From Paramacrobiotus metropolitanus (lineage: Eukaryota > Tardigrada > Eutardigrada > Parachela > Macrobiotidae): a stretch of 64,000 bases of DNA. The translations under genes and the position numbers were made by a program. The stretch lies in the NCBI RefSeq assembly GCF_019649055.1, contig NW_026570307.1:186001-250000 (forward strand). The letters run 5' to 3'. Shown here piece after piece: positions 23,447 through 57,633 of this stretch; the stretch's first letter is position 1; each line of letters opens with the position of its first letter. The notes beneath the pieces were generated by a model. It searched no databases. It saw only the letters and a list, made by a program, of their open reading frames with translations, and had not been told where the DNA came from.

Positions 23447-24180
23447 CCTTATCTCTATTCTTTGACGGGGTGATAACACAAATGTAACAAGCAGACACCT
23501 ATACCGATTACAGATTACAGTTTGAGTGTTTGTAAGTGTTATGTCTGTAAATTAGATCAAAATTGTACCTCTTGATCGTTTGCACTAGTAATATGTAGTT
23601 AGCCGAAGACTCCGAAGATGCACTCAAGCAAATGCGCCTGGCTGGTATCGATCCTAAAGGTTGAAGCAAAAATGTCTTGCGGCTGTTATTGTATCGCAAG
23701 GTGCGGAGGTTTTACGAGACAGCCTTCGTAATCAGGTTTACAAAAAGGTACTTATCTACATCAATTTTGAAGCTAACCATAAGACGAAGCGCAGTACGTA
23801 CTGTTAATGTGTAATTGTGTACCGTATATTTATATTTTGATGGTAGAACGGTACAGTACACCACCACCGGGCGGTGTTTCTGAAATAAACCGAAGGGTAG
23901 GGTTACTACTCGTCGGGTAGGATACTAGGATTTTGGATTTATTTGTACGCCAAGATTAAAGGAATCAAGAATTCAAGATTCAAGAGTCCCAAGAAGATAG
24001 GTTATAAATTTAGGATAGAGATTTCAGTTTTCTGGATTGTGAAATTTGCCTTTTTGTACGAAAATATATCCGACATTAAGCGGCAGATGTGCTTCCTAGA
24101 TCGCTGATAGCAAAGCAGAAATTTACAAATTGGGACTTGAACATTCGGGCCAGTTCGGGGTTCGAACATTTATTTTCGTT
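23447..24180. other. Divergent intergenic region GLB1L2/AATF
   Basis: About 730 bp between two divergently transcribed genes, presumably holding both promoters. A short minus-strand frame near 23508-23699 has no family signature. Confidence 0.4.
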
Positions 24181-26395
24181 ATGGATTCTGAATCAGAGAT
24201 TGCATCCGAGGAATACGCCGACGACAGCGAAGATTTCAGCGAGAACGATGCTTTGGATGGTGAAGTCACGAGTGAAGATGAGGAAGGTGATGCGCACGAA
24301 TCTGTGAAACATTTTGCGCATCCCCTGAGTGAGTCCAGAGGAGAAGCCGCTAAAGGAAAAGCTGTGCAAAGCCAATTGAGTACGTATTCATCTGCATATC
24401 ATTATCATAATTTGTGTACTTCTAGACGTATTTGGAATTCAGATTATGGCTGGCTCTCATGATACCGTTGACAATAACAAGGATCGTTTGCGTAATACCA
24501 AATAGGACGATTAATAAGTTTCACCACTTGCAGATTTATGGGACGGTCTGCTGGAGACGCGTATAAAACTGCAGAAACCTCTTGCAGTTTGTAACACGTT
24601 GCCGCAGGCAGGCAGATTTAAAACATTCGTGGATGCAGCTGATGACACCACGAAGAAACATATAAAAACAGGTACCTAAATCTCTGAATGTACGACTTCA
24701 CGTTTGCTGTGTATTGCGATTTATACGCATTGCCATTACTGTTTGTGCAAACAGCTCAAGCTGAATTGGGACAGCTGTTAAGAGGCCTGGTCGAAGTGCA
24801 GCAGAATTTGCTGGAAAGAAATGCCATCCTCACTGGACCTGATGCTGAAGAGCAGGATGGGTGAGGAATTTGAGAATTTTATCCTGTAATGCAGTACATG
24901 AAAATATAATGCCATTTGGGCCAGTTGCATTAATTGTAAGTATATTTTCGTGTACTACAATTGGACCAATTGAATTGGGCTCGGTAACTGTTACGATAGT
25001 TTTATAACCATTTCTGTCGCTAGATTTTGTTGACAGCGCACAGTAGGTTTGTGCTTCATAGTTTTACTTCGTATTAGTAAATCCCGGCATCCCCTTACTT
25101 GGTGTCAGTGGTTAGTGTGTAATTAGAGGCGTCTGTTGTGAAACGACTGATCTTTGCGAATGCTCTGTACACCTGGTAATTACTGTATTTTATTTGGTTT
25201 ACAAGCATTTTTGTTTGGCTTTGTTGTAGGAACGAGTTGGATCACGAGTTTTCGTCAGCGCTTGTACATCCGGTTAATTCACTGGATGTCATTGATAAAG
25301 GTCTGACGGCGCGAAATGCGGCTTTAAGAAATTTCAGGTATTTCACCGCATTTCCTTTTATGGTGTCGGGTGCATTAAGCTGCATGAGCACCAAAATTCT
25401 CGAGTTCTGGACATCCGATTAATCTTAATGAAGTGGTTTGCAGAAATTCGACGTTAGAGAGCTGGCATGGCAAAACACAACAGTTTTCAGTGGGCATGAA
25501 GCGAGGATTTTCTGCTTTTGAACAGTCACCGGTTAAGCATATCGAGCAGGTAAATCGAGATTGTGGGCCTGAAAAATGTAACATGCAGCACCTACGAGAG
25601 ACGCGAATGTTTCTCTGACCATCGTTTGCTTTCTTGATAGCTTATAGTCTTATACTGGTTTATTTTTGCAGATAATGGGTGATGTTGACCGTTTGGTTCA
25701 CCGGACTAAAATACGAAGAACAGCGTACGAAGTCTTAGTATCCAGCGTGGTGGAAAATTCGTCTGCCACAAATGATAATAAAGTAAGCCGTTTTGTCTTT
25801 AAATTATTTCTTGAGCTGATCCTGGACAAATTCCGCTTTTGCTATAGAAAATTTCGAGAGCACCCCAGTCCATAGATCAGGAAATATTTGATGATGATGA
25901 TTTCTATCACACATTATTACGAGAATTAATAGAAAGAAAGACCACTGGAGCAAGTGACGACCCTTTGGAGGTATCAAGGCGAGTTTTTGCGGTGCTTCTA
26001 AATTGCTTTTAGACTTTACTTAATGTTTTTTGTATTTTGTATAGGCAGCAAGTGCAGTTGGCGCAATTAAGAAAGCGGACTAAAAAACTTGTGGATTCCA
26101 AAGCCACTCGTGACCGAAAGTTGAAAATGGATCCTCACCCTAAGCTGATCAACTTTATGGCGCCGCAACCAGTTTGTGGCATTACGGAGCAAGCACGGTA
26201 CTGAAATGACTTACCATAATAATTATAAGTTCATTTGGATTCTGAGACGCGTTGACTAATGACACATATTCTTTCAGAAATGATTTGTTCAAATCTGTAT
26301 TTGGAAAGCTGTTGTCCAATCCTCCCGTCTCACAGTCAGTGAACAATGGCAAAACTGGTGATAATGCAAGAGATATTATACTGTTGCGATCGTAA
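24181..26395 (+). CDS. AATF: AATF/Che-1 homologue (traube), ribosome biogenesis and transcription factor
   Basis: Nine exons: 24181-24379, 24534-24671, 24755-24860, 25230-25337, 25444-25549, 25672-25782, 25848-25978, 26045-26197, 26278-26395. Phases agree throughout, giving 389 residues (human 560). An acidic Ser/Glu/Asp-rich N-terminus is followed by the AATF core: LWDGLLETRIKLQK, a leucine-rich stretch, and SWHGKTQ..KRGFSAFEQS. The C-terminal TRAUB domain has EIFDDDDFYHTLLRELIERK, KLKMDPHPKLINFMAP and RNDLFKSVFGKLL. The family acts in the nucleolus in the ANN (AATF-NGDN-NOL10) complex for small-subunit rRNA processing and has transcriptional roles. The intron after exon 7 uses a GC donor (AAG-gcgagt), forced by the reading frame. 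The N-terminal acidic arm is shorter than in vertebrates. Confidence 0.9.
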
Positions 26396-27502
26396 AATCT
26401 TCATTGTTCAGCAGTGGTCTGCTTCTTGCTCTTTGGCGAAATTGGAATGGTTTACTGTTAGAAACTTAGAGACCATTTATTTCCGCATTTGTTTTCCGAA
26501 AAACGAAATCAGATAAACTGGGCGCGAATATTTTGGAGGCGACGCAAGTTTATAAAGTGTACGAGTACTTTCAAAAAAAAGATCTAAAAAAACAAAGTGT
26601 ATTGACAGCCAACGCAACTGCTTCTGCGGGGCGCGTAACCCGCAGTATCGGAAGTATTGAAACAATAGTGTGATTGTATTGAAACAGGCTGGTGAAAAAC
26701 GTGGAAAATTAAAAGTTATCAACACAAGGATGTATCACATCGCAATTTTTGCGGATCATTGCTAAGCACACCAAAGTCTAAACCTTCTGTTGGTCTGGTC
26801 TTTGTGATCCGAGATCTGCTTGTTGGGACTTCGGATTCACGAAACTGGCCAAATGCTCATGAAAATCTTTAAGTCTCCTTTCTCGCGCTTGTATTATGGG
26901 GTTCAACCATAGAGAAGGAAAATACTAAATAAAAGGAAAATATTTTCCTTTTCTATGGTTCAGCTGTTCTTCTTGGTGCTCTGTTATAACGAGCATATGA
27001 CATGTTCTTATGCTGTTGACCCTTTATTGCACCCAGTTTTTCGTCCGTTTGATAAAAGACTGGTGCGTTTCCTGGGGCAGGTAAGCATTTGTACTCCTTT
27101 TTCTGAAAATGAAAGAAAAAACGATGCGTGATACGGCCTCAGCTGTAAGCCCGTAACCGGCTACCGGTATTCGCTAACGGTAAGCAGTATTTATTCCTCA
27201 ATTTCCTGAGCCTTCGTATCAGTAAAATATGGTTCCATAATAAATACAGGTACCAAAAGCCTTGAAAACCAAAAGCCACCATCTATCACGTATTACCGAG
27301 TCTACAACACAAGATAGATAATTATACTGAATTTAATTATTATTTCATCAACATGTCAGGACGGGTGCAAAAGCAACAAAGCCGTTAAAAATTCACCACA
27401 GCATCGCACCGAAAAAACATCGTAAACCAAGCTGCAACTTGCATAATTATGTGCTCGCATCTATGCGCTCAAGCAATTTTCGGTAACACATTTAGTTTTT
27501 AA
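26396..27502. other. Intergenic; no gene supported
   Basis: Convergent 3' regions of AATF (+) and the Sloth-like unit (-). I see an inverted pair around 26905-26960: AGAGAAGGAAAATA with an upstream AACCATAG is mirrored by TATTTTCCTTTTCTATGGTT, a hairpin-forming palindrome of about 20 bp per arm. No coding sequence is recognised. Confidence 0.35.
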
Positions 27503-28031
27503 CTACGTTTTTTGATTCAGCAGAGGGGGAGGTTGTTGAGCAGGGGATGGTAAGGGAGCAGTAACAGCTGGTGTTTCAGATGCCGCGCTAACCTGCAATC
27601 GAAAGAATACGTACTGATTGCCTGATGAAGACATTGAAAACAACTAGCATATATTGTGCTAGTTACGCAGCTTTTAACAAAGAAAGTAAAGTCAATTCAA
27701 AAACTAGTTTCACGAATTAAAAATAACATTATAATTATAAGACTGGCATACCCTTATTGCTTTTTCAAAAGCACCTATGGAAATTTGGAAAAATACAAAC
27801 CAGGCTCGCACTGCGATCAAACGGTGAATGCGTGTGGATAGTCTTGATTCACGAAGATAAAAACCAGCCGAAAATTAAATGTTCAAACCCATTTCGTTAC
27901 TACATTTCAACCAATACATCCTTACACATGCCCACCTTCAAAGGCTGAAACATCCAGTGAACAAACTGCGCGCCGGCCAGAGCAGACAGACCAGACGCAA
28001 AGGCGAATTTGATGTACTCCCGACTGATCAT
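27503..28031 (-). CDS. BRAWNIN/C12orf73 (Sloth2)-like mitochondrial micropeptide
   Basis: Two exons: 28031-27936 and 27592-27503, GT-AG and phase 0, giving 61 residues. The N-terminal half (MISREYIKFAFASGLSALAG, then AQFVHWMFQP) matches the start of vertebrate BRAWNIN/UQCC6: a short lead, Y-x-K, one hydrophobic helix, AGA, then a VH motif. The C-terminal half is Pro/Ala-rich with no similarity that I can see. BRAWNIN is an inner-membrane factor needed for respiratory complex III assembly. Its start lies 45 nt below the stop of the SMIM4-like ORF on the same strand, the same order as the bicistronic sloth1-sloth2 transcript of Drosophila. The short length keeps confidence moderate. Confidence 0.6.
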
Positions 28032-28076
28032 TTCGAATTTGGATCCACGACGTTTACACAATTACAGGAGCCCCGG

Positions 28077-28565
28077 TCAAACTTGTGTCGATACTGCCGA
28101 CGAAGTCTGAGAAGTTGACTGCCGTTGCTCCAGGATTTTTTGATAAGAGCTAAGAAAACTGGGCAGCTCCGGACTGTCGGGAGACAATATGGGAAATGAA
28201 CTGTCGTGGGCAGCCTTCACAGGAATCAATCGCTCCGGATGCTTACGCTTATATACATCATCTAACAATGATGCCCCATTTACATGGTGATTCCTCTTTC
28301 ACAATAAATCCATAAAGCTAGACTTACAAAAATTAGTTTCTCCGATAGTCAAATGGATCATAATAAACTGCAAAAGCCAACAATAAGTGAAGCGAAGCTC
28401 AATTCTTGTATGCATGTAATCATGTAATGCTAGCAATATGCAAGGGTCCTACAACCTAACCTCAATAGCCGCTCCACATGCGAAGAACAGTGGCAGGAAA
28501 CGATAGTAACCAAATCGTTCTTTCCCTGGCCATCGATCAAGAAAGCGGTAGAACAATGCTCGCAT
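28077..28565 (-). CDS. SMIM4/UQCC5 (Sloth1)-like mitochondrial micropeptide
   Basis: Two exons: 28565-28461 and 28295-28077, phase 0, giving 107 residues. The first exon reads MRALFYRFLDRWPGKERFGY, then YRFLPLFFACGAAIE. It matches SMIM4 in the PGK-RFG-YRFLP block followed by one transmembrane helix ending in E. The second exon gives LLDDVYKRKHPER, like the YDVYRRKASER block of SMIM4. It then continues in a Ser/Pro-rich tail longer than in human (about 70 residues). SMIM4/UQCC5 is a complex III assembly factor in the inner mitochondrial membrane and partners with BRAWNIN. The exon 2 acceptor (AAAG before AGG) is weak but is required by an upstream in-frame TGA. It is the upstream half of a probable bicistronic transcript. 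Confidence 0.72.
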
Positions 28566-28899
28566 ACTGTCATGCACGATCTGAGCAGTTCGAACAGAAA
28601 AATTAAAAGATGTAAAATCGGTAGTTAAATTTGCAGTTTATCACTGTTTATGCTTGTCCCCTAGTCCCCTACGCACCAGGATAGCCGAAGGCCCGAAGTC
28701 AAGCCGAAGTCAGCTCCTTCCGACTCGCAGACAGCAAAACAGAAGGTGATTCAATTTTATTACTATCTCAAGATCTCAGTGTTTTAACCAGCGCTGTAAT
28801 AGTCTAAATATGATAGGAATATAAAGTTCTTGTCAAATGAAATTTAAATTTTATCTTTGACTAGAAAGTATGTACAATAATATACGAGAATTTTTACTT
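28566..28899. other. Promoter region of Sloth-like unit, up to transposon insertion
   Basis: About 330 bp between the SMIM4-like start and the Harbinger target site. No coding sequence is seen. The transposon sits close enough to affect the promoter. Confidence 0.4.
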
Positions 28900-29071
28900 A
28901 TTAGAGCTTGTTCTGGATAACACGGTACATATAATACGGTAACCGTGACGGTAGTTATCGTGATCGTTCCGATTTTAGCTTGTTCGGCATTCATGACGAT
29001 AACGATTTCCGTCTAGATCTTCAAATTTTTAAAAAAAATTTTTGCAGTCTTTATTTGAGAAATTTGTAAAA

Positions 29072-30983
29072 ATGAAGAAATCCACTCTATACCTTTTGTA
29101 CTACAAAAAATATATTTCGCTGAAATTATTCGTGATTCTGCGTCGGCGCTTGATAAGAAACGGAAGGCGAGTAGAGCAGCGTGATAACTGGACCGAAAGA
29201 GCTTTTCGTCTAGAGAACTGCAGCGAGAAAGAGTGTTGGGATTATTTTCGATTCAGAAAGGACGATATCCCCACTTTGCGTATATGCCTTAAAATTCCAG
29301 ATTCGGTTGTGACAGCAACAGGAGACCATGCGTCTGGTATAGAAGCTCTGTGCATACTACTCCGACGCCTGGCATATCCTAACAGATGGATTGATTTAAG
29401 AAAGCTGTTTGGTCGTTCTCACGGGTCCCTGTCAAGAATATTTTATGCCACTTTGAATATTGTTGATATCCAATGGAAAAATCATCTATCAACATGGGAT
29501 CACGACTGGCTATCAGAAGATTTTTTTTGCGTTGTACGCGACTGCAATTGCGGGGAAAGGAGGAATCATCCCTAATGTTTTCGGGTTTATTGATGGTACA
29601 GCACGTCCCATCTGCCGTCCTTCGGTGAATCAAGAAATCATGTACAGTGGACACAAGCGATTTCACTGTACAAAATGGCAATCTGTTGTGCTCCCCAACG
29701 GTTTAATCTGCAGTCTAAGTGGAGGTCAGCCCGGCACGATGCATGACAGCCGCATGTTTAGGGAAAGCGGGCTTTTAGAGCAGCTGGAGAAGAAGCAGAG
29801 AACTTATCAGCGAAAGTTTATACTCTACGGTAAGGTTGTTAACGGTGCGGTTTTTTACCGGTGCAATTTGAAAAAATTGCGGTGCGATTTCGAAACAAAA
29901 TTGGTACAGGCGGTGCGGTTTTTGAGAAAAACCACACCGGCGCACACCGGTGTGGTTGGGTAACCGCGTTAACGTACACCGGTTAACCACCGGTTAACCG
30001 AAGATTTCTAAAATTCGTAGTGTTTTAAAAAATTTAAAACATTTTTATGCGATGACGCTGCTGGATGGGCACATGCCCACGGGGAGCACGGGCTGTGGCG
30101 CTTGTAAGTCAGTACCGTATCAGTCGGTATGACAAAGTAGGTAAGTACTCAATGCTATTGCTCACTCACAGTCTCACAATCACAAGTTTCAACTTGTAGC
30201 TGCTGCAACAACCGGGCTGCCATAAGATTAAAGAAAATGTGTAACATTGCTGCGTAATAATATTGGCGGCTTGATTTTCCACGCTCTACGTTGATTTGGT
30301 TTCGTCACAAATATTCTTAGGGAAATTGTTTTCGATATTTCACGTCTTCATTACAGTTTTCCTACGATTGGATACATCCTGCTGGTGATGCCTTTAGAAG
30401 GCTGAAAGCTAGCAGTGCTAAGAAGTTCTGGCGATTGATAAGTGATAAAATTGCTAATTGTTGCTTTTTCTTCTACTAACGTGTGCTACACCGGTGCACA
30501 CCGGTGCGGTGCGGTGTGAAAAATTGCGGTGCGATTTTTATTTTTCACCGCACCGTCCGGTGCGATTTTCGCTTTACACCGGTAAGGTAAGTGCGATTTC
30601 TTGTAAAACCGCACCGACGGCACACCGGTGTACACCGCACCGCACCGTTAACAACCCTACTCTACGGAGATGAAGGTTACGGAAACAATGCGTTCTTGCG
30701 GAAGCCGTTCTCGAAGCTGGAAGTACGTACTAACCTCCTGAAGCGCATGCAGAACAATGCGATGAAAACAGTACGCGAAAGTGTTGAATGGGGATTCAAA
30801 GAAGTCGTTGCAAAATTTGCGTTTGTTGACTTTAAAAAGCAGATGGCGCTATTACAGAAGCCAATTAACAAGATGTTTATAGTGGCTGTTTTACTAACTA
30901 ACTGTATAAACTGCATGTATCCTAACGAAGCAAGTCAGTTTTTTGATACGGAACCACCTACGCTGCAGGAATATTTGCAATAA
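29072..30983 (+). pseudogene. Harbinger DDE transposase, disrupted
   Basis: HARBI1-like transposase. The N-terminal part (29072 to about 29520) has the FRFRKDDIPTL and HASGIEALCILLRRLAYPNR blocks. The catalytic part has GFIDGTARPI (first Asp), PGTMHDSRMF (second Asp), GDEGY, and RESVEWGFKEV (Glu). Two lesions are seen. One is a one-base shift in a poly-T run at about 29520-29527, moving the reading from one frame to the next. The other is an 829-bp hAT-type element inserted inside the LYG/GDEGY codons at 29831-30659. Apart from these the frame is open, so inactivation looks recent. The poly-T shift could also be a sequencing error. Confidence 0.88.
29831..30659. mobile_element. Non-autonomous hAT-type element (829 bp)
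   Basis: Inverted ends TAAGGTTGTTAACGGTGCGG (left) and TAGGGTTGTTAACGGTGCGG (reverse complement of the right end) are flanked by a perfect 8-bp duplication, CTCTACGG, at 29823-29830 and 30660-30667. An 8-bp TSD and TAGGG-like ends are hAT hallmarks. It contains no long coding frame. Both internal flanks are packed with ACCGGTG/CACCGCACC and GGTGCGGT motifs in both orientations, i.e. subterminal transposase-binding repeats. Its insertion splits the Harbinger transposase. Confidence 0.88.
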
Positions 30984-31022
30984 AATAAAACTGCTACATT
31001 AGTTTTTAATTTCTAATCGCCT

Positions 31023-32038
31023 TCACTTATTATGTAAAAATGCTTTATATCTGAGTTTTTCGATATCAAGCTTGTACTTTTCAAGTTCCAGTTCTTTTAG
31101 TCTAATCTCTTTTTGATCAGCCGCTTTTTTTTCTTCAAATTGCAATTTTTTCTCTTCCTGTTCGCGAAAAAATTCCATCCATTTCATGTCAGTTTCAGCC
31201 TCGTACTTTTTGCTGGCTTTTCGCGATGACCGCAATGCACTGGAAGACGACGATGAGGCCAAATCATCAGCGACAGAAACTCCTCGTCTGGTGCGCAGCT
31301 CTTCTTCCCAGTCACGTTCGTCCAAACCAGTTTCACGCAAAAAGGTCTCCTTATCCATTTTCTCTGTAAATAAGATATCAGAGCGTTATCACTGTAATCA
31401 TTAATTCTGTGCAATTTAATATCGTTAAGAAAAAATTACACAATTACACACAAGAAAACTGCCGTAAAAGAAAGTTGCATGGTGGAATATTTCGTACATA
31501 CCTGTTGCTTCAGTGTAGTCAGGGCCAGCCCGTCCCGTCTCGCCCGCAGCTCGCATCAGAGACGCTGTGCGATCTCGACGTGTTTCTTTTTCCTTCGCAG
31601 CCTTTTTCTTTTCTTCCTTCTCTTTTGCAGCGGATTTAATTAATGAGGCGATATCTTCTAACAGTTGTTCCATGCGGCCGTACTGCTCCTCAGTTCCACT
31701 TTTACTTTTATTGCGCAAGTCGTTTGCCTGATAACTGGTAACAAGGGTCGACAGTCTCTCTTTAACGGCTCGCACGTCCAAAGGCCGCTCAAATAGCTGT
31801 CAAAGCGGGTGGTTTTAGCAACTGTCTTTCCGTTAAAAATAGGAACGATGATCCTAAAACATGTTAGGCAAGTGCTGCAGAAACGTACCTTGGCATCATT
31901 CAGAGATTCAACAACTGACTTCCAGGCTCCCTCTCGATCGTCCGAGGCGTACGGGTTGTAGTGCTGAACTTGTTCAAGCAAAGGTAAATCATGACGTGCC
32001 TTAAAGCATCTTCTGGAGATCGCTGTACTGGTTTCCAT
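31023..32038 (-). CDS. Harbinger Myb/SANT-like accessory protein
   Basis: Three phase-consistent exons: 32038-31889, 31796-31502, 31363-31023, giving 261 residues with no lesion. The N-terminal region (about residues 10-85) has the Myb/SANT-like pattern DLPLLEQV...NPY.......AW..V...LN, then a second helix pair. The rest is strongly charged coiled coil (KEKEEKKKAAKEKE near the middle; EEKKLQFEEKKAADQKEIRL near the end). In PIF/Harbinger elements this second protein binds the transposase and imports it to the nucleus. It remains intact although the neighbouring transposase is broken. Confidence 0.8.
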
Positions 32039-33870: not shown

Positions 33871-36800
33871 ATGAAGATCGATCGCAGTAAAATCAAAAAG
33901 GTCCCTGCTGACCCGGTATGATATTATTTGGGAAATCTGTGGCTGGTATGTTCTGTGGCTGTATTGGAAAATATGTTGCAGCCACCGGATACGAAAGCCG
34001 TCATTCAGTCGTTAATGACTGTGGCCAACGATGACACGGCATTTCTGAAAGCGCTTCAAGATTGCAAGTCCTGGACCGTCAGCAAGGTGCCACTTTCTTC
34101 GGTTTTTACTGGTAGAAATTATTAGTACATGTTCCATTTGGCTGCAGTGTGAAATCTATCATTGGGTGGATGTCCTGAACAAATTCGATGAGATTTTGGC
34201 GGACGCGACAACCACTGCCGATTGGATGTTGAGCTGTGATATTCCGGATTCCCAGGACTCGAAATTGGTAAATACATCCGTTTTGTTGTCCATTTTAGAA
34301 GGTGGTATCAAGTTTATAATTTCTCAGGAAGTCTATCTTTGTTGCAGAAAGGAGCATTGGTTAAAGAGGTTCTAAGATTCACTTCTATGCTCATCGAGCA
34401 CAGCTTCTCGAGACAGCTGTACAACTCCATGGATCGGCTGATCACTTTACTGGGCTCGAGTGATATGTACATCGTGGAAAACGTTCTTACCCTTTTGTAC
34501 ACTTTTAGGTGAGGTTTTAGATTAGCATCGAAGAAATTTTTTCTAATGTGGTCGTTTATATTTAGTAAACGCACCAGTTTTCTGACACGAATGCGCGATG
34601 ATCAAAACAAAGAGCTCTTCTTGCGTCTACAACTACTTGCCGAGGTAATTATTGCATTTTCTAAGCTGACTTTATTGTTGTTGTATTTTATATTTGTTTT
34701 TGTATAGACTTGGGGTGGCAAGGTAAATGGTTTCGGATTATCCAAGTGCTGCGAAGATGTCCCTTTGGATCAGTATCCATCCACCGCTACGACAGTGCAT
34801 TTTGAATTCTTTTCTGAGCCGGAATCCGAGGATGACAGCGCAAAGCGGTCTACCACAAATGTGATCCACATCGAAAATGTTGACAGAGTATGATAACGAG
34901 CTGGTAATAGGTGAATCGATTCAGTTTGATGAGGTTGTTTGATTTTAGTTGAAACCAAAAACGGTGCCAGAAATTATGACGGATCTCGTGCGGGAATATC
35001 GTATTCCGGAAGCTAAGCAGGTGTGCAGCAAGATATGGACGTCATGGGTTATTATTAGTTCAGCGAGGACCGTGCTGTAAATGTATGACTGCATTGTAGA
35101 TCCCGTTGTATTTCCACCTCCGTCTAGCATATTGCTTTGGAAATTACAAGCAGCGCTTGCATTGCGTCCAATCGCGATTGCTAGCGTTATCCATCTTGGC
35201 CTACACGTGCCGCATTCCGGAAAACGTGTCTTCATACATTTACGGAGGACTTGTGGAAGAGCTGGTTGATGTGCTCCAGCTGAAACATAAGCCAGAATTG
35301 ATGGTAAACCTTCTGTTGTGAATTTCTTTGTTATTCAAAAAATTGTTTAGTGGATTTGACACGCACAGACGCAGTGCACTGCACATCGTTCTTGTGAATA
35401 TGATGACTTTAATTTGACCCACTTAATTTTTGTCGGTATATCGCAAATGGATCTTTAAAATGTTGTTATTGATTTGCTTATGCAGGATTTGAAAACAATC
35501 GTAATGCGAACGCTGACCGCTATTGTCCACCACGACCGCGGCTCACGTTGTAACGATATCATTGATGCCATGTCAGCCTCCTCCTACCACGGATTTCTGC
35601 CGGTTCTTGTGCGTTCATGCATCCAGGCGCTAACGGAAGGGAAGCGCGATCAGTTCCCGATCAATTACGCTACAGCTGTATTTTCTTTCCTGTACCACTT
35701 GGCCAGCTATGAATCGGGAGGCGATTCATTGGTGGCGTGCGGTATGATGGAATCTATGTTGAAGGTGGTGAATTGGTATGATACAACCGAAGAGAACATC
35801 ACGGTAAGTTTTTGTGTTTTTGTTGGAAGATGAGTTACAGGAATGTGACCGACAAAGACCTCTTACTCTGTGTTTAGTTTGTGACACGGGCTGTGCGTGT
35901 CATTGATTTGATTACCAACATGGATATGCAGTCTTTCCACAATCATAACGGATTGTCCTTGTTCACGAAACGCTTGGAAGTAAGGAATTGTTTATAGATT
36001 TTCATGCTTGAATTATAAACATTTATCGACTGTTTGCTGTGAATAGCATGAAGTGGAGATTTGCGCAAAAGAGCAGCCAGATCTGATTCAGGCGCCATCA
36101 CTGCAGCGGTCCGAATCAGTGACATCGGATAGTGGAGCTGGTCCGTCGAAACAGGAGAAGACTGAACCTTCACCGTCGGCCTCCAAGTCTGGAACTGGAG
36201 AGCAATGCTTTCCGCAGCGCGTGGCTTTGCTGAAATCCGTTTTGAACTTCTTGAAGAAAATCATTCCAGACCCCACTTTCACGGATTCCGTTCGCCACCG
36301 TAAGTTTACTCTTTTATGAAGGTGTTGATGATTTTAACTTTTTTTACCATATCTTGTGGTTGTATTATAGTGATGGACGGAAGTTTGCCTAACTCGCTTA
36401 AACATATTATCAGCAATGCGGAATATTACGGATCTTCGTTGTTTCTGCTGGCCATTGATATTGTCACAGTGTACGTGTTCCATGAGCCGGCCATGCTCTC
36501 TGCCTTGCAAGATCGCGGTTTAACGGATGTCATTCTACAAGCGGTCCTTCTGAAAGATGTAAGAACATTTGTGTAGTTTTTTATTAATGTTGCGTCGCGG
36601 TATCTACGACTTCTACAGTATGTATTTGTTGTTCGTAAACGACGCTAGAAAGACACACAAATCATCGTTAAGAATTAACCATTTCATGGTTTCTTCTTTG
36701 GTATTCAATGTGGACATCGGAATTTTTTTCCTTATAGTTGCCTCCTACAAAAGAAGTGTTATCAGCAATTCCGAACATCTGCAGCGCGTTATGTTTGAAT

Positions 36801-39800
36801 TCGCGAGGACTGCAAGCTTTTGTGGCTTTGAAGCCGTTCGAAAAATTGTTCAAAGTCCTCTTAATGCCAGACTATCTACCGGCCATGCGGCGTCGGCGTA
36901 CTGGCGAGAGCTATGGAGATACTGCGACCGGTTTGGGCAGTGCTGTGGATGAGTTGATGCGGCATCAACCGTCTCTGCGGGCGCAGGCCATGCAAGATAT
37001 TGTTAAGGTAATATCTTTGCGAATTTTGTAACCATATCAAATTTTTTTTCCAATTGTAAAATTTACAATTACTGTGCTTGTTACTCCGTTAACTTAGCAG
37101 GATGTTTTGTTTCAGCTGTTGAACGATTTGTGCGCCATCGGGAGAGACCCGAATTTTATTGCGGTTGGCAACGGTACTTTAATCCAATCGATCAATCGCG
37201 TCCAACGGGCCGATCAAAGCATTCCGGGAGATTCAGACTCTGAAGACGAAGACTTCGAAGATTCGCAGCAGGGAACAGCTGGGACTTTTCACACAGTACC
37301 GTCTGGACTCCAAATGGATACCGTCGCTACCCAGGAATCTGACATGAAAGAGAAAACTCCCGTACCGCTACTGGACTACATAGTGCACGTGGTATGTATT
37401 GGCACTCTGTATCTCATTTCTTAAGCAGAATCTTATTTCTTGAATTTTGTAGACCAAATTTGTGGAAGCCGTTTTGACCAGCAACTCCACCGATGATCAT
37501 TGTCGGGAATTCATTCGGCAGGATGGATTGAAACCCTTGATGGAAATCTTCCGCTTGCCGAATTTGCCTTTGGATTTCCCATACTCCAACGCATGTCATG
37601 CAGCGTATACTCTGGTAAAATCGGTGGTAGCTTATTGTCGCGATCATTTGGTTTTGGAGGAGGCGTTTACCCACATGGAGCTCGTGCTGAAAGAAATCAA
37701 GGCCTGCACGAAACCGGTGCCTGAGCCCGGAGGATCGGCGATGCTGAATGAGTGGGCACGTACGGCTCCGAATATCGATGATGCGCTGAAAGATCCACAA
37801 CGCACACCGTTACTTCATCGGCTCTGTTACATGCACAGCTATGTCAGCATGATGGCGCACATCTGTAAACTGAATCAGGTGCAATAATTTAGTTTACCTG
37901 CGTTGATCGAGTACCAAGTTGGTCACCGATTGTTTGCGCTTAACCAAATTTTTATTAATAGTCGGATATCCGGATAATATGTACAAACTCCTGGGCAACA
38001 GAGAAGGGATTGAAGCTTCTCCAGGAGATCGCGGATTTGTACAGTTTCCTGATTTGGGAGAATACGATCTTGATTGCGTTATGCAGCGACGAGGGGCTGC
38101 TGCCTCAGGAGAGCGACATTAGTCGGACTGATTTGAAGCTGATTTTGGCCAACCGAAAAGGCGCAGTAGAAGAAGAAAAGCCAAGCGACGAAAATTCCAG
38201 CGGCGGCACACCAATGGATGTTGATGAACAACCGAGCACTTCCGTATCCGTTCCGCCTGCGCCAGTTGCTGTTTCACGAAAGACCTCCACCAATGGTACT
38301 CGACCGCAAATCCATATTGTTAAGCTGTTAAAGCCTTTGATTACCGTGGCGACGAAGTTGTGCCGTGTCACTGGCGAATTACTGAGTTTAATGGTAAAGT
38401 TTTGCGTCAATCCGGCACGACAGCGCCGACAGGCCATTGGATCGCGAAACGGTGAAGTCCCAAGCAGCAGTGCTCGACAAGTGGCTACAACGATTGCTGG
38501 CTTAATGACCCAAGTGCTCAATAAGAAAGGCCCGTTAAGTAACCCGCCAGCGCGCTTCCGGTTAAATTATCTGATCTGTGTTCTTACCTTCATACAACCG
38601 TTGATTTTCGATGAGAAACGGTTTGCCTTCCATTATATGCTTCAGAAGTTTATTGCGGTGGGGACAGTCGATGCGTTCTTTGGAATTTTTGAAAATGTGA
38701 TGAAAGGACCAAGTGTGGAGTCCGATATTAACCGCTCAGTGACGGAGAAAACTATGATCAATCAGTTTATTGTGGATTTTGTGGTTGCCTGGTTGTCCTT
38801 GTTAGAGAAATTGATTAATCCGAAAGCCGTTATGGAAACACCCAATGTTCTGCCTCCGTCGAGGATTGCGATATCCGGTTATGCTCCATTCGATCCAGCG
38901 CAGTATTACATCAAAATGCTGCACCATACACTGCAAGTGGTGGATCGGCTGTTGTCGGTGCAGACACTGAAGAGCTTTGGAGAAAGTACGGGAGATCTAT
39001 TGCTGACCATCTTGAGCCACATTATGAAAATTGAAGCTATCATCAAGGAGAAGGCGCCGGAAGTTAGCGCTGCGGCCGCCCCCGAAGCTGGTCCACCCGG
39101 TCCGAACGCCGCTGCTCCTGCACCTGAGGCTCCTCCTGCTCCACCTGGGCCAACTCAGCAGCAGCAAGCTTTAATGGACATGGGCTTTCAGAGAGAAGCT
39201 GCTGTCGAAGCTCTGGAGCATACCAACAATAATGTCGAACAAGCTGCGGATTACCTTTTGAATTACCAGAATGAGCGAGTGCTGCGCACTGCCGGTATGC
39301 GCTTGATGGACGTGGACTTCGACAACGCGGAGGACGAAATTATGCTGCAGGCTATTGCCATGTCAATTGGGGACCGGGATACCGGCGCGCCAAGTGCCGA
39401 TGGTGCGTCCTCATCGAGTGCATTGGCCCCGCAAGTTCCTCCCACGGCGCCGACACCGCAGCAAATTGAGGCTCTCATCGACAAAGCGCTGCCGCTATGT
39501 GTGGATTTGGTTGATTATGCTCCTGAATGTGTTTTCAAGGTTGCCGACCTTATCTCCGTGATCAGCAAGCGGAACGGCAATGAATGGCGACTCCGGCTAA
39601 TCCGGAAGCTGGGAGCGGATGCTGTAATGTTTGCAACAACAGTTGTGAACAACGCAGATGCAATGTACACGGGAACAGTGACCCCACCGGCGGATGTGTC
39701 ATTTGCGAAGCTGATGAGAAGTTCTGCTGAATCGCAGAAGCTAACGGCAAGGCTGCACTTGCTGTGTATATTGCTTCAGGTAAGTTTGCTTTGCAGTTTG

Positions 39801-42800
39801 GAATTGACAACATATATTTTTGTAATTGATTTTATTTTTTAGGACAACCAAGAAGATTGTGGGAAGATTTTGGATGGCGATAGTTTGATCCCGTTGCTAA
39901 TCAATCTCATCAGTGCAGCCAGGCGCATTTACGGCATGGTAGCGCGCGGTATGGAATTGGTTCCGAAGTGGTTGGCCTTCGCGTTTCTGATACTGGACTC
40001 ATACGAAAAAATGTGCGCCATGGTGAAACGCAAGGAGATTCTACAGAAGTATTACACTCCCACATGGAAATGGTTGGATGTGCGGCTAGGAAAGTGGACC
40101 GCTTACAGTGAGCAGAATAACAAGGAAATCAACGATGCCTACGAGAGGGGCATGCCAACATGTAAGCTCACTGGCCAAGGAGCCGGACCCGTACGGCAGT
40201 ACATTGTGCGCTTCAAGGATATGGTACAAGTGACGGATTCCAGCGGCAGTCGACGACCAATTATGAGAGAGCTAAAAAAGCGCGAAGCGAAACCGGTGGA
40301 AAAACCAACCGAAAGTTCGGACGATGGAAGTGCGATGCAGACCGACCAAGACCAGGCTGAGGAAAAACCTTTTGCCTTGATGAGTGGTCTGAATAAAGAG
40401 CAAAAGTTTCTCCTTATCAATGACATCGTCAGTTTGGTACATCAAAAGCTGGATCCTGACACCCTGCAGGCCGCAATGCGGGTGCTGCTGCGGTTTACTA
40501 GAGATTACGATTCGGCTCGCCATTTTGCCGAATTAAAAGGGCCACAAATCCTTTTGGGTTTGGATCGACGATCATTCTTCGAAAGTTTCAGCTCATTTTT
40601 AACCCATCTTATACGCCACATTATTGAAAATGGTCCCATCCTTGAGCATTCCATGGAAAAGGTACTTACTGGTCTTGTTTGTGCACGTTAAATGCGAGTC
40701 TGTTTAATAGTGATGTCTGTTTCTTTGTAGTTTTGTTCATGGTTGACCTACGGTGTGGTTTCACAAACAGCCGGTACGAATTACGGCTCCCATGCTGTAC
40801 GGGAAGGCAATTATATCATGCGAATTTGCTGGCCTGGAGCGGCCCGAAATCCCGAACTGTTCGTCGAATGTGCTAAACGCACGATACAGTTCAATACTCC
40901 TGCCCCGACTCAGGCAGCCGCTGTTCGCACTGATGATCCGAATTCGCGAACGGATTTGATCAAGCCAAGCCCACCGAAGTTCCGTAACAAAGCCGTCAGC
41001 AGCGATCAGTCCGCGGATTATAAGACCGCGCTCAAATTGGTCATGGCTGAATTGTTGAACTTGCTGGTGGTCCCCTGGGAACCCGAAGGGAAGCCTGAAT
41101 TGAAGAAAGACGGGAAAGAAGGCGCTGGAGCAGTGAGTGAACGGATCTCGCTGTTGAAATCATCGGTACATCAGCTTCAGCAGATGTTGCAGACCACACA
41201 GAGCGGAGATGCGGCTGCGACTTCGTCAAGTGTGAATGGTTCGAGTTTGGATGCGGAGCACAACATCTGGAAAGCGTCTGAGAAAGCCAAGAAGCCGGTG
41301 ATGAACAAGTCCGTTACCTTGCGGGTCATTGCTGAGTTGATCAAGTCGTACAGTCTGGTGGCGGAGTTCGTTTTGGGTCATACGTTTTCCGTAGACCAAG
41401 GCGGATTGATTAAAGAGGTGAATAATTTTTACTGCAATACATAGATTGTTATTTTGTTTAAAACTGATTCTTTGTTAGGAAAACGTGGGTGCCTTAGCAT
41501 TTATTCTGGACAATTTCGTCCACATGGCACAGAAAGCCGGTGACGAGTATTGCCCTCATTCCACACGGGTTCTGATGGCGGCCCTGGCGTCGGCATGCGA
41601 GAACCCTCGAGCCCAGATGCAGGCTGTGGAAGAAGTGAAGCAGGCATTGTATCGTGCGACGCTGTTACCAGAAACACAAGAAAAACATGAACGAATTGGT
41701 GCCTTAGCGAACATCGTAAGTAGGGAAAGCATCGACATGAACATTAACTTTACTGCGGCACTTCATGTCCCCCGCTTTCATTTTTTTAATGATTGAGGGA
41801 CCTTTTATTTGGTGCGAAATCATGATTTGGATTCAGCTCATGGACTTTCTGTGCGAGAATTTCCGTGCAATGAGTTCATACAGCTTTTCTTTGAACTTTA
41901 AAATTTCTGTGTGTGTATTCAGTTTATGGCTTACAGGTTTTGGAGGGCAGTTTTACAACAAGCTTTTCTTTCGCAGATTCATACGATGGTTGACGCTTGT
42001 CCGACACGGGTAGCGGATCCTAACGATGGACGTAAAGTACAATATGTTGTCAACCAAATGGCACGATTCATGGCAAAGCGAAACTTAATCAACGACTTGG
42101 CAAAGATTCCGCACTGCCTGGATCTTCGTAGCCCACATTTGGCTGTAACTGTCAACGCTATTTTACGCCCACTGGAGATCTTGACGCGATTAGCATCACA
42201 ACAGGATAAACCGAAGTCAAGAACGCGACATTCCAGCGTAGCGGTTACCAATACCCTGTCCACCGCCGGAAACGCAGAGGCTGCCGATTTGACGAGAGTT
42301 TCAGCTGTCGATGAGTCTCAACGGACGGAAAACGACGTGGCACCAATTTCCGATGAGGCTGTAAGTGCGGCCCTGTATACAGTAACTGCGGCACCTCATG
42401 TCCCCCGCTTTCGTTTGCTTGATGATTGAGGGACCTTGTACTTGGTGCGAGAATAAATATTTTCGAATTCAGCTCATGGACTTTCTGCGCGAGAATTTCC
42501 GTGCAATGAATTCATACACCGAAGCCTTGCTGAAAGCGGTTGTTTTTCCGCTGTTGTGCTCGAATTATTTCAGTATTTCAGTATTATATTGCACAGTTTC
42601 CGAATATTGAAGGTTTCGTTAGAAAGAAGAATATTGAAGATTTCGTTGTGCTTATCGTTCGTATAGAAATTCTTGCCTTAGCTCCTCTGTATCCGCGAGG
42701 TCAGTCAAGTTATACTCCTTTGCAGTTGAACATGTCCGAAGCAGCAGAAATGGGTGATATTTTCTTACGGGCGCCAGCTATGGAAATCGATATGGATAAT

Positions 42801-45800
42801 CCACGCGGGGGATCAGATGATGAGGACGGTGACCGTCCACCACCGCGCCACAGTCATCGTATCAATGAACTGGAAGTGTCGATGGATGACGACGATTCGG
42901 AAACCGAAGAAAACGACATCAATCAACGACGATCTCCTGGCCGTATTACCGACGAAGAACAGGATGAAGCGGATGAAGACGAGGAGATGCATGATGAAGA
43001 CGACGACGAAGATGACGAAGAAGAGGATGAGGAAGATGATGAGGATGACGATGATGAGCTGGTTGAGCCGGTATGTGGACGGTTCCTCTAGACTGGTTTC
43101 TTTTGGACATAGAAGACTCCGTTTCCTATCTGTTAACTTTTGTACAGGGTGTGCCCGTGGACAACAATGGTGCCGGCGGCATGGCTAACCTGTACCATGC
43201 TGCTTTTGGTGCGGTCGAATGGGATGAAGAACAAAATCCCGATGACGACATGCTGCTGCACCTGGAAGATCTTTTTCCCGGGGCGGCCGTCCATGCTCAC
43301 GCTCATCATGGAATCTTGGATCAACCACTGGTGTTCGAAGTGAATACGGTTGGCCCTGGGGGACTTGCGCAAGAAATACAGGGTGGAGATATGGGTGGCC
43401 GGCAGTTGCCGCCCCCGCTCTCCATCTCCTCCAGTCATCCGTTGCTATCACGACCGCCAGCTGGTGCGGAAGTGGCTCAGGGAGCGGCTGCGGGAGCACT
43501 GCCTCGGATTGGTTTGGGAGCCGGTGTCTCGGAGGCGTCATTAGGCAGCCGTGGACTGCGGACCCTCCGTGTGCGAACCAATTTGGGACGCGGCGGACTC
43601 GGTGCCGGAACGCGAGCGATCAATCCTGGACCGGCAATTCTGCAGCGGCTCCTGGGCCCGACATTCCGTATCGAAAACGACATGATTGTTTCGGCGGAGG
43701 GCGGCTTTGGAGCAGCCAGAGCGATGCGAGATCCGCGGGCCCTGTTCTGGGACGAGCCAGAGTACAGCAGCGTTCGTCCTACCGAACAGGAAGATCTTGT
43801 CCTCATGGTATGTTTGAGTTAGCATTTGAAGGCTTTTGTAGTTCGGTATTTTATTTGATTTTCTGTTAGGATGATCCGATCTTTTTGGGCAACACGGGAC
43901 TGGTAGCCACGCTGCCATCCTTGGTTCGCCGTTGGAGCGAAGAGGCCCGGGTGTTGGATGGTGATAATGTGATTGAAAGTGCTGACATGGTGAAACCGTT
44001 TATCTTTCCTGATCTCGAAGTTAAACGTGATGAGATTATGAAAAATATGAAGAAGCCGGAAACGACTGATACTGCCACCTCGCCGATTTCCGCATCACGG
44101 GCTGGTATGTCTGTGTTGCATCCCTCTTCTGTTTTTCACCGAAGATCTCAGGATTCGGTTACGAGTACGAATCTGTTTCCATTGTGTTTACTGAAAATAC
44201 AAAATGTGACACTGATGAATATTTATAGATGCCAGTGTGGAAACCCAAGCCACAGCAGGCTCTTCTACTGCTCACGAAGATGCGCTGAATTTTGTGATTA
44301 ATGCTCAGGCGGTGCGAGATGAACTCTTGGATGACATTGCACGGATGCAGGAGCATGTGGAACTGCAGGCTGAGGCGGTGGCAGCCCTGAGTCAAGCGGT
44401 TGTAGCACAGGCGATGAATGAATCGGATTCTGAAAATTCTGAGGATTATTCTAGTCATTTATCGGAAGACACTGATGGGGAACTGCAGGACGCGGCTATG
44501 GCGTTGACAGACATGAGTACGGAGCAGACTACTCCGGCTCCATCAGTTCCGGCACACGATTTGCTTCTGAATGGTAATTCGATAAAAAAGTAAATTCTTT
44601 CATAGTGGTAATGGGAAAATTTCTTTAGGGATTGTGTACAAACTTTGTAAAGTCGTTGCAGACATATTTCAGTCTAGTGCTAGAGTTCGTAGAAGATTGT
44701 GATTTTTGGGAAATGGCTCAGTTTTCGTCGTCTGGTCACTACCATCTGGTGACATTTTAATTAAGTTGTGGTTTTTTCAGCGTCTGGAGCACCGAACCCG
44801 GTATCCCCAGCCGAAATGGCCGTTAATTCACCAGCGGCTGAAGCCGATGCTGGTCTGGGGCAAGTATTATCCGTGCCACCGACAGTGAGCAGTAATGTCC
44901 TCCCAACAGCACCGCCTGCTGCAAGTATGGACACTACGGGAGGACAGGACATCTCAGTTACGACGGCCGCGGAAGGCACTTCAACGGAAACTGCCAGTTC
45001 CAGTGACCAGGGCCCCTCCACCAGTACGTAGTGAACCGATAAGAACTCTCAAAGGCACCTAATCCAGCAAAGTTCTCGCGATGATTCCTTTGCTAATTTA
45101 TGATGCCATAGTGAATGTTAGGAATATCCTCGGTTTTCGCAGATCTACCGTGTGTTAATCGGTGGAAAGCCTATCGACAAAACATTTTTTGTGAATGCAT
45201 TACAGTAATTTAACGCGCTGAGGTTCCAGTTGTGACGTTGAGACATGTTTTTAGGTAACAATAATAACTATCCGGAAGGAATTGATCCGTCATTCTTAGA
45301 AGCATTACCCGAAAATATGCGCCAGGAAGTTATTGCGGATTATTTAAGGATGCAGCGCGTTCAGCAACAGAACATGCAAACCAGAGCAGCTGCTTCCAGT
45401 AATGCCGCACCTGTGCCAGCCGCAGTCCCTGATCCCAGTCAACCAGGGCCTTCATCGGGTGTACCCCAACCACAGCTGATCGAAATCAGTCCAGAGTTTC
45501 TGGCAGCATTGCCGCCGAATATTCAAGAAGAAGTACGTGTTCTTATTTTGATGAAACGTGAGCGTTGAAAGCATCTTGTCTTGCTTTCTGTGTAGGTATT
45601 AGCCCAGCAGCGCCTAGAGCAGGCTCGCCTTGCGGCGCAGAACGCTGCACCGGACGCCCCCTTTGATCCAGCCAACTTCCTGCAGAGTCTGGCGCCCAGT
45701 CTCCGTCGCCAGATCCTGGCGGATATTGATGATTCTATGCTGACCGTCCTGCCGGACACGGTGGCCCAGGAAGCCCGGACATTGCGCCGGGATATGGAAC

Positions 45801-48800
45801 AGCGTCACATCTTCCATGGCGGCCTGGCGTTTGAAGGCGACGTGATTGCGTTCATGCGCGGTCGTTATCCAAGTGAGCTCAACCTTGATGCTGCTGATGA
45901 TCATGTGCCAACGGGTCGACGTCACGTATTTCTTGCAGCTTTGCGATCACGCGGAGGATTAACCGGACGACCGTATACAACTAATTTCGCCACCCGCGGC
46001 GGCGGGACCATGGGACGTCGGCAGATTGGACGGCTGCGGATGCGGGCCGGGAATGCCGGTGGACCGGATCAGTGGTACGGGGCGGGACTGCGCTCGTCAG
46101 GATGGAGTCGGGCCACCACGGGAACGGGTACGGAGCTGTCACGGAATGCGGATTTAGAGTCCATGGGCAAGAACAACGCCAAGCCCATTCTGGACTTTGA
46201 AGCGCTGGCATGCTTACTGGTGCTGTACTTTCTCAATGCACCGGCGGTGAATGTTGGTCGGCTGCAGCGCATCTTCCGCAACATTTGTCATCATATTCCG
46301 ACACGGGAGTGGGTCTTTGACGCCGTAATGTCAATGCTGAAGAAAGCGGATGACAGCAAAGCCCAGGAAGCGAAGAAAGTGTATTCCACCATCAAACCAA
46401 ATTGGCTGAACATCAGTATCGACGCGGCGTTGGGCTGCCGGGCCAACGTCTTCCAGTTGATGCCGAAACAATTGAAAAAGCCGCAGACTGCGCAGACCCC
46501 TTTGATAACCATCCATCCGCAGGCGGCGCAGATCGTCTGCACGAATTTGTTGGATTGCCTGATGTTGATGGCCAAAAACTTTCCCGAACAGTTTGTTCCG
46601 TATGCGATCCGTCACGTAGCGCAACTGGGCATGCAGCCATCGTTGGAAAAATCCACACCGGATTCGCACGGTAGCAATCGAAATTCCAAATCGCCCAGCC
46701 GGGGATCAGCGCGCTCGCACGGTGTTGTAGCGAAGGGCGGGCAACAAGATTTCTGGGAAGTGTTGGTGAAACTGGACGCACAGGTCGGAAGTGGACTGCG
46801 CAAGAGTGGAAAAGTTTCAAGCAGGATGAGCAGTGCGGGGCCGACGAGTGTACTGGAGCTGGGACCAGATGAGCCGCTGCGTATGACGACGTTTGTTAAC
46901 TCGGGCTTGGGACAGCTGATTACCATGCTGCTTTCGGAGACGTTCCACAAAATTCCCGATCTGTCCGATCGATTGCTGCGTTTGATTGCGTCCATTGCCA
47001 ACAATGTCCATAAGCGCGATTTGGGTATTCCGGTGATGAATTCGGCCGTGTCAAAAACAGCTCGTGGTGCGATTCGGCCGGGTAAACTGAGCAAAAAGGA
47101 CAGAGAGATGGTGGTGTGGAAAGCTGCCATAACGCGCTACTTCAGCCTTGGAAGTATGGATTTATCTGTGCAGCCTCCGGTGCCCATCGTCGAAACGGAA
47201 GGTGGGGATTACGCCGCTACGACGGCTGAAGTGGAAGGAATGCTGACCAAGTTCCTGGCTGGGCTGGATCCACAGGCCGATTTGTACGATCTGAAAGACC
47301 AAATCTCTACTGCTGCCAGTGGTATGTCGACTTGATTTTAATCGGTCTTCGCCTTGTTAAATTTGTTTGTAATAGTGCATGGGATCATATTTTGTTTGCA
47401 GAATTAAGCCAATTATCGTCACCCGGTGCCATTAAGTTTTCCTTGTCAGTGGAATTTGAGCAGTGCGAAGAGATCTGCAGTTTACTGCGAGAGCTGGTGA
47501 ACGTTTTAATTGCTCGCCGCTGTTCTGAGGAAGGATTGGAGAACATAACCCATACCCTGATCGTTTTGGCCCAGCGTTTTGGCAGTTCAGTACGGCAGGC
47601 CATCGGACAGATGCTGTTGAATGGTATTCGCCAGTTGGCCGTGGATGTGTGCAAACAGATTGAGTCATTGATGAAAGAAGCGGCTACGTATAATGCCCAA
47701 AAATCTCGCGAGAAAACGGAGGAATCTGAAGAGAGCCCTGAAAGTGTTTCCTCTGATGGATCTGCCAAAGGAATCATCTCTGATCGGTAATCCGATAGGC
47801 ATGTGGAAAAGAAATCCGAATTTGCCTCAATTTTTTTATGTTTTAGGTTCTCAACTGGGGAATCAGTGGTGCTTTATAAGTCCAAAGGAAAAGCACAAGC
47901 TGGTCCGGAAGTCCATCTCACTGCAATGTCGAATCTAACCGGGAAGTCATCTTGCCAGACTTTCATGTTGAAGCTGCTGAAAATGATGATCGACTTACGA
48001 GGAAATTCAAGAACTTTCTTGCGGTCGCGGGCAGGTATGTCTGTGTGAAAATGGCGGTTTTTTAGGAAATTAGAAATTGGCGTATTGCGTTATACGATAG
48101 TTGAAAAAAATTCATTGGATTGCGAGTGATTTGTGTGGTCTTTCGTTTTAGGTGATAAAGCTGAAGAGTGTCCAAACGGGACAGTGAACTCACTGGCCCG
48201 ACGTCTTTTGGAAATATCATACCGACAGCGTCAGCGCAAGTCCTCGCCACAGCCTTCCACACCGATTTTCCGCGAACAGACCCCTACGCCCATGGATGTA
48301 GATGTGACCAATCATGAAGAACCGGGCGCCGTCCGCACAACGGAAAGTGTGGGAGTTCAGGCGTCTCCCAGTGCACTGCAGCCACAGGAGCCGGAAGTGG
48401 ATCTACCGCCGATGAGTGAACTGTTGAGTGTGGATGATCTGTGGACCTATCTGTCGCTTTGCCTGTCCGAACTTGAAAAGACCGGCGATCAAAACGCGGT
48501 GCTGATTCTGCAGCCAACCGTTGAATCGTTCTTCTTGGTCCATGCTACGGAACGGAAGAATGCGGATACGCGGTTGGAACGGGCGCGCAGTGTCACCCAA
48601 GAACAGCACCATGCCGCCGAGGAAGCGGCCGCACCACCGTCACCCGGTGCCGCGGTGAGCGGGGAAGCGTCGACGGTGCTGGCGGAGCAAGGCATGGGAC
48701 ATCTGCCGCTCGATGTTCGCAAATTCCTGCATTTTGCGGAAACACACAAAGTGGTGCTGAACCAGATTCTGCGCCAGTCTACTGTGCCGCTGAGTGATGG

Positions 48801-57347: not shown

Positions 57348-57633
57348 GATTCCGCTGGCAATAAGATCTGGCTGTTGCTCGAAAAACTAGTTGCTGGCGA
57401 ACCCAGAGCGCTCAATAATAACCACAACTTCTGATCGTGCCGAGAATGAAGATGATCGACCGTCGCGGCCGTATGCATGCTGCATGCACTGCTGTTATTA
57501 TTGTACGACATTCAGGTGCAGTAGTTATTTGTACGAACTGCTGCATACCGTATCCGACCGGTACAAAAATACGGGTGTATACGGGTGTACTGTACTTCTA
57601 CTTATCTTTACTAATTTTAAAAAAGTGCAGATC
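57348..57633. other. Upstream region of P450 copy A
   Basis: Non-coding sequence presumably holding the promoter. No core element is identified with confidence. Confidence 0.35.

What the first reader, a model, noticed from the sequence alone, without database searches (positions are those of the whole stretch)
27503..28565. Conserved Sloth1-Sloth2 micropeptide pair, probably bicistronic
Seen: two tiny same-strand ORFs only 45 nt apart. The upstream one has the SMIM4 PGK-RFG-YRFLP block; the downstream one has the BRAWNIN Y-K-helix-AG-VH block. Known: in Drosophila, sloth1 (SMIM4) and sloth2 (C12orf73/BRAWNIN) sit in the same order on one transcript, and both products act in mitochondrial complex III assembly. 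Inferred: the arrangement is ancient and kept in this lineage, with an intron inside each ORF. Genes this small are commonly missed by annotation.
Basis: partly seen in the sequence, partly recalled or inferred. Interest (0 to 1): 0.78.

Follow-up and report, generated by a model that had tools for sequence, protein, structure and literature searches.

The report
Tardigrade SMIM4–BRAWNIN micropeptide gene pair
Two tiny mitochondrial assembly-factor genes, known in flies to share one messenger RNA, also sit back to back in what is very probably a tardigrade genome, which adds a new animal group to a known arrangement.

Summary
On the minus strand lie a three-exon SMIM4 (Sloth1) gene, 28565-28077, 109 aa, and a BRAWNIN/C12orf73 (Sloth2) gene starting at 28031; 45 nt separate stop and start. 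The spliced products pass Pfam's cut-offs of 27 bits (UPF0640 97.8, DUF4516 33.2). Each family has one match in the 169.8 Mb assembly, both here. The spacer has no AG, ATG or AATAAA, so a trans-splice acceptor or poly(A) signal in it is unlikely. One dicistronic mRNA is the best reading; no RNA data were available. The arrangement is published for fly, sea squirt, lamprey and choanoflagellate (PMC9681215), so this is a new member of a known kind. Unlike fly, both start codons have a purine at -3 and five AUGs lie between them, so fly-style leaky scanning is not specially supported.

The parts
28461..28565 (-). Sloth1/SMIM4 exon 1 (start codon at 28565)
   Evidence: Pfam UPF0640, exon 1 with three read-on residues 53.6 bits; coordinates
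28368..28460 (-). Sloth1 intron 1, 93 nt, GTTAGG...TTTTGCAG
   Evidence: joining across it and intron 2 raises the profile score to 97.8 bits
28328..28367 (-). Sloth1 exon 2, 40 nt
   Evidence: part of the continuous UPF0640 match, profile positions 6-62 of 67
28262..28327 (-).
   Evidence: joining across it carries the profile match on to residue 61
28077..28261 (-). Sloth1 exon 3 with stop; includes a C-terminal tail (residues 62-109) beyond the profile match
   Evidence: profile match ends at residue 61; coding bias of the tail inconclusive
28032..28076 (-). 45-nt intercistronic spacer with no AG, ATG or AATAAA
27936..28031 (-). Sloth2/BRAWNIN exon 1 (start codon at 28031)
   Evidence: Pfam DUF4516, residues 3-32, profile positions 7-36 of 46
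27503..27592 (-). Sloth2 exon 2 in the 61-aa model. Alternatives: acceptor 27621 with donor 27936 gives 66 aa ending at 27517; acceptor 27621 with donor 27926 gives 74 aa ending at 27503; unspliced gives 43 aa ending at 27900
   Evidence: not resolvable without RNA
28571..28573 (-). uncertain element: an AUG 8 nt upstream of the Sloth1 AUG, in another frame, behind an acceptor-like CTCAG whose last base is 28581
   Evidence: whether it is in the transcript is unknown

Best explanation
This is a sloth1-sloth2 (SMIM4 - BRAWNIN/C12orf73) locus, very probably of a tardigrade, transcribed and spliced as one dicistronic mRNA that encodes two small inner-mitochondrial-membrane peptides. By analogy with human and fly, they act together with UQCC1 and UQCC2 on newly made cytochrome b in an early step of complex III assembly, and sharing one transcript keeps their amounts matched. 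Shown here: both gene identities, one detected copy each, order, strand, 45-nt gap, and matches to the UQCC1 and UQCC2 families elsewhere in the genome. Inferred: one transcript, membrane and mitochondrial location, function. For translation of the second ORF I favour a mixture of leaky scanning past the Sloth1 AUG and re-initiation: the four out-of-frame ORFs that start inside Sloth1 all end by 28226, and no AUG follows until Sloth2.
For: Pfam UPF0640 97.8 bits and DUF4516 33.2 bits, cut-off 27 each. One match per family in the own genome, both at this locus; neither family rang in the 14 control genomes, which are prokaryotes as far as named. Searches with the two proteins found no second copy, the only hit elsewhere being E 0.98. 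Exact anatomy. The spacer lacks AG, ATG and AATAAA; 4.1% of all 45-nt windows on this strand of the 64-kb window lack both AG and ATG. Matches to the UQCC1 family (2.0e-7) and UQCC2 family (5.0e-15) in the same genome. Known role of the human pair with UQCC1, UQCC2 and new cytochrome b (PMC8719881, abstract and passages). Bicistronic transcript in Drosophila and similar architecture in choanoflagellate, sea squirt and lamprey (PMC9681215, passages and section 5).
Against: No transcript evidence. Both AUGs have a purine at -3 (A for Sloth1, G for Sloth2), so the weak-then-strong asymmetry reported for fly is not seen. Five further AUGs lie between the two starts, against a mean of 3.3 in codon-matched shuffles of Sloth1 (P of five or fewer 0.98), which argues against plain leaky scanning. 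A 109-codon first ORF is long for re-initiation after Sloth1 itself (general knowledge). The Sloth2 match is modest, covers only its first exon, and its hydrophobic peak is weak (1.19). A UQCC3 profile found nothing, though that search rang in no genome and shows no absence. The UQCC1 profile also rings in 2 of 14 bacterial/archaeal controls, so it is not specific to mitochondria.
Confidence: 0.8

Rival explanations
1. Two independently transcribed neighbours: Sloth2 has its own promoter inside Sloth1 exon 3 or intron 2, and adjacency is just retained linkage.
For: No RNA was available. The Sloth1 tail lies beyond the profile match and could carry promoter elements. The published figure legend counts 'adjacent separate transcripts' among linked structures.
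Against: A 45-nt gap leaves no room for a separate poly(A) site and promoter outside coding sequence. Of the five poly(A)-type hexamers scanned over 27000-28700 on this strand, none lies within the pair; the hits are at 27337, 27195 and 27028, all beyond the Sloth2 stop.
Confidence: 0.12
2. A trans-spliced operon: the precursor is dicistronic but is cut into two mRNAs by spliced-leader addition upstream of Sloth2.
For: YAG sites exist in the last part of Sloth1 (28107, 28094), and a CTCAG site sits just ahead of Sloth1. One paper names tardigrades in the same sentence as nematodes and appendicularians when it lists changes such as trans-splicing and operons; two of the three references it gives there are by title about Oikopleura and nematodes, the third about metazoans in general (PMC7854359, passages).
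Against: No AG in the spacer. No SL1-family match in the genome at E <= 1, although only 50 of 33806 candidates were scored, the model is that of nematode SL1, and two prokaryote controls rang below the cut-off. Two literature searches (5 and 2 papers listed) showed no title or abstract start that reports tardigrade spliced leaders; of these papers I read passages of PMC7854359 only.
Confidence: 0.05
3. Sloth1 ends earlier because of an unrecognised intron in its tail, so the spacer is longer than 45 nt. This can hold together with the dicistronic reading.
For: GT-type donors after 28247 and 28221 within exon 3; YAG sites at 28174 and 28150; the tail's coding bias barely differs from one other frame (-0.111 against -0.145).
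Against: The frame stays open to 28077, and the profile match runs through the first part of exon 3 without a break.
Confidence: 0.1

Closest known systems
Drosophila melanogaster sloth1-sloth2 (CG32736-CG42308), PMC9681215 (passages and section 5)
   Same: Same two families, same order, same strand, very short gap; sizes 79 and 61 aa in fly, 109 and 61 (or 66, 74, 43) aa here.
   Different: Gap 45 nt, not 5; longer Sloth1; no weak/strong start-site asymmetry. Introns here; the word intron does not occur in that paper's main text, so fly introns were not compared.
Human SMIM4 and C12orf73/BRAWNIN, PMC8719881 (abstract and passages)
   Same: Same protein families; a clear hydrophobic segment in Sloth1, a weak one in Sloth2.
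   Different: On different chromosomes in human; adjacent here.
Linked pairs in choanoflagellate, sea squirt and lamprey, PMC9681215
   Same: Similar bicistronic architecture, as the paper states.
   Different: Their sequences were not read here (supplements could not be opened), so gaps and introns were not compared.

Membership tests
SMIM4 / UPF0640 (PF15114) | Profile match above curated cut-off over most of the model | tested here: met
   97.8 bits against 27, positions 6-62 of 67
SMIM4 / UPF0640 (PF15114) | Hydrophobic segment fit for one membrane span | tested here: met
   maximum 19-residue Kyte-Doolittle mean 1.96, starting at residue 23; usual threshold 1.6 recalled
SMIM4 / UPF0640 (PF15114) | Inner-membrane location and binding to UQCC1/UQCC2 | not testable with these tools
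   known for human
BRAWNIN / DUF4516 (PF14990) | Profile match above curated cut-off | tested here: met
   33.2 bits against 27, positions 7-36 of 46; 35.5, 32.4 and 33.8 bits in three other models of the 3' end
BRAWNIN / DUF4516 (PF14990) | Hydrophobic segment fit for one membrane span | tested here: inconclusive
   maximum 19-residue mean 1.19, below the usual 1.6 (threshold recalled)
sloth1-sloth2 bicistronic gene | sloth1 then sloth2 on one strand with a very short gap | tested here: met
   45 nt
sloth1-sloth2 bicistronic gene | One transcript spans both ORFs | not testable with these tools
   no RNA data held
sloth1-sloth2 bicistronic gene | Weak start context on sloth1, strong on sloth2 (reported for fly only) | tested here: not met
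   GACAGT-AUG-C and TTCGAA-AUG-A, purine at -3 in both
sloth1-sloth2 bicistronic gene | Subtle sequence similarity between the two peptides (27% in fly) | tested here: not met
   BLASTP of the two products gave no alignment at E <= 100; profile methods were not tried
spliced-leader operon | Acceptor AG between the cistrons and SL RNA genes in the genome | tested here: inconclusive
   no AG in the spacer; SL1 search negative but shallow

The most novel reading that the evidence does not exclude
Tardigrades express the pair from one dicistronic mRNA whose second cistron is reached mainly by re-initiation after short out-of-frame ORFs inside Sloth1, rather than by the leaky scanning proposed for fly. 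The linkage would then be old while the translational solution differs between lineages.
Probability: 0.25. Interest if true: 0.5.

Novelty: new member of a known kind. Interest (0 to 1): 0.36.

Why it matters
If confirmed by RNA, a tardigrade joins fly, sea squirt, lamprey and choanoflagellate. That would strengthen the view that this two-gene transcript predates animals and was broken up on the way to jawed vertebrates, as PMC9681215 proposes. It also gives another animal in which to ask how an ordinary eukaryotic ribosome makes two matched peptides from one mRNA. Genes this small are easily missed in annotation; the deposited annotation was not available to check.

Tried and rejected
Nematode origin was considered (operons, compact genes) and not supported: no Col_cuticle_N match (no control rang, so this is weak) and no SL1 match (weak). 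Using a lipocalin/FABP gene as a tardigrade marker led nowhere: 246 PDB sequences matched at E <= 1, of which 60 were shown, all named as fatty-acid-binding proteins or their close kin. A viral-contig scan for Sloth1 relatives confirmed none of 21 pattern matches. Neither peptide has a PDB relative at E <= 1. NCBIfam, built for prokaryotes, gave nothing, Rfam nothing over 24000-32000 at gathering thresholds, and a repeat scan of 27300-29000 only one two-copy 19-nt repeat and one imperfect inverted pair. The paralogy of the two peptides proposed for fly was not visible by BLASTP. A broad literature search (831 papers, 20 listed) listed only PMC9681215 among papers on this pair.

AUG depletion ahead of Sloth2 as a sign of selection for scanning: the last 59 Sloth1 codons lack AUG in 29% of codon-matched shuffles and the spacer lacks it in 39% of shuffles, so it is not significant. 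A 224-nt AUG-free stretch is found in 2.7% of windows of that length on this strand; I take the codon-matched test as the fairer one. Absence of AG in the spacer: 2.0% of mononucleotide shuffles but 9.3% of real 45-nt windows.

Full report
Observation. The two ORFs are on the minus strand of the window. Sloth1 runs 28565-28461, 28367-28328 and 28261-28077 (109 aa, introns of 93 and 66 nt, GT-AG). The gap between the Sloth1 stop and the Sloth2 AUG is 45 nt.

Identity. The spliced 109-aa product matches Pfam UPF0640 (SMIM4) at 97.8 bits over positions 6-62 of 67, and the 61-aa product matches DUF4516 (C12orf73/BRAWNIN) at 33.2 bits over positions 7-36 of 46; both cut-offs are 27. That these Pfam names stand for SMIM4 and C12orf73 is recalled. 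Exon 1 of Sloth1 alone gives 53.6 bits, so the splices add about 44 bits and are well supported. Four models of Sloth2's 3' end score 32.4, 33.2, 33.8 and 35.5 bits. The one with donor 27936 and acceptor 27621, ending at 27517, scores highest, by 1.7 to 3.1 bits; another, with donor GTAAGG after 27926, keeps the 27503 stop; the unspliced reading (43 aa) gives 33.8 bits. These differences are too small to choose, so the Sloth2 3' end is open.

Not chance. In the whole assembly (169,799,020 bases, 533 contigs) each family has one match, and both are at this locus. Searches with the two proteins found no second copy; the one hit elsewhere has E 0.98. Random placement within 45 nt downstream on the same strand has a probability of about 1.3e-7.

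Organism. The window is contig 87, bases 186001-250000. Paramacrobiotus metropolitanus is reported to have a 170 Mbp genome and five DMRT genes, two of them (the 3090/3093 complex, a region of more than 30 kbp) on scaffold 5, in a stretch compared at 1.96-2.37 Mb (PMC11191345, passages). The DM-domain search here gives five matches, two of them on contig 5, at 2.135 and 2.163 Mb. Contig 2 is 3,852,049 bases long, long enough for the paper's scaffold 2 stretch at 3.79-3.84 Mb. I take the genome to be this tardigrade's published assembly or one very like it; no call names it. That paper gives the assembly a BUSCO completeness of 72.9%, so genes not found here may simply be missing.

Transcription unit. 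The spacer has no AG, no ATG and no AATAAA, so a trans-splice acceptor or a canonical poly(A) signal inside it is unlikely. Of the five poly(A)-type hexamers scanned on this strand over 27000-28700, the first after the pair is ATTAAA at 27337, about 165 nt beyond the 27503 stop, as expected of one shared 3' end. This is consistent with one dicistronic mRNA but does not prove it.

Translation. In the predicted mRNA the Sloth1 AUG has A at -3 and C at +4, and the Sloth2 AUG has G at -3 and A at +4. The fly gene has a non-optimal first and an optimal second context (PMC9681215, section 5); that asymmetry is not evident here. Between the two AUGs there are five others (28533, 28479, 28361, 28261, 28258), one of them (28361) in the Sloth1 frame; the four out-of-frame ones open ORFs of 23, 5, 11 and 10 codons that end by 28226. 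A further AUG at 28573, 8 nt upstream of the Sloth1 start, opens a 40-codon ORF ending at 28358 if it is in the transcript. Five is above the codon-matched mean of 3.3. Plain leaky scanning is thus not favoured by the sequence; leaky scanning combined with re-initiation after short ORFs is possible. This is inference.

Function. In human cells SMIM4 and C12ORF73 depend on each other, bind UQCC1, UQCC2 and new cytochrome b, and support early complex III assembly (PMC8719881, abstract and passages). In fly, loss of either peptide is lethal and both bear on complex III assembly (PMC9681215, abstract and passages). The present genome has one match each to the UQCC1 family (2.0e-7; this profile also rings in Escherichia coli and Caulobacter, 2 of 14 controls) and the UQCC2 family (5.0e-15; 0 of 14 controls). 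A UQCC3 profile found none, but it rang in no genome and does not show absence.

Novelty. The arrangement is published for fly, choanoflagellate, sea squirt and lamprey. Searches of the held library for tardigrade with SMIM4 and tardigrade with brawnin returned no paper, and the searches for sloth1/sloth2, SMIM4/C12orf73 and UQCC5/UQCC6 (4, 4 and 2 papers) listed no tardigrade study by title. So this is a new member of a known kind, of moderate interest.

Noticed in passing
window 29457-29963 (+), with 29033-29575 (+) just before it: A DDE_Tnp_4 transposase-like open frame (56.5 bits) starts 892 nt upstream of the Sloth1 AUG on the other strand; the overlapping frame from 29033 matched no family. 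It looks like a PIF/Harbinger-type element (type recalled).
   Followed up: partly
window 26013-26204 (+): TRAUB domain (44.3 bits), so an AATF-like gene runs towards the Sloth pair from the other side; its frame ends 1299 nt from the Sloth2 stop at 27503.
   Followed up: partly
window about 35400-50400 (+): Long open frames that by eye look like a HUWE1-type HECT ubiquitin ligase (recalled; not tested by a family search). Five of them were used as codon-usage reference.
   Followed up: no
window 54964-60423 (-): By eye two similar cytochrome P450-like genes in tandem; one piece, 55908-56648, was tested (89.2 bits).
   Followed up: partly
window 28571-28573 (-): An AUG 8 nt upstream of the Sloth1 start in another frame, behind a CTCAG acceptor-like site ending at 28581, could open an overlapping upstream ORF of 40 codons.
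   Followed up: partly
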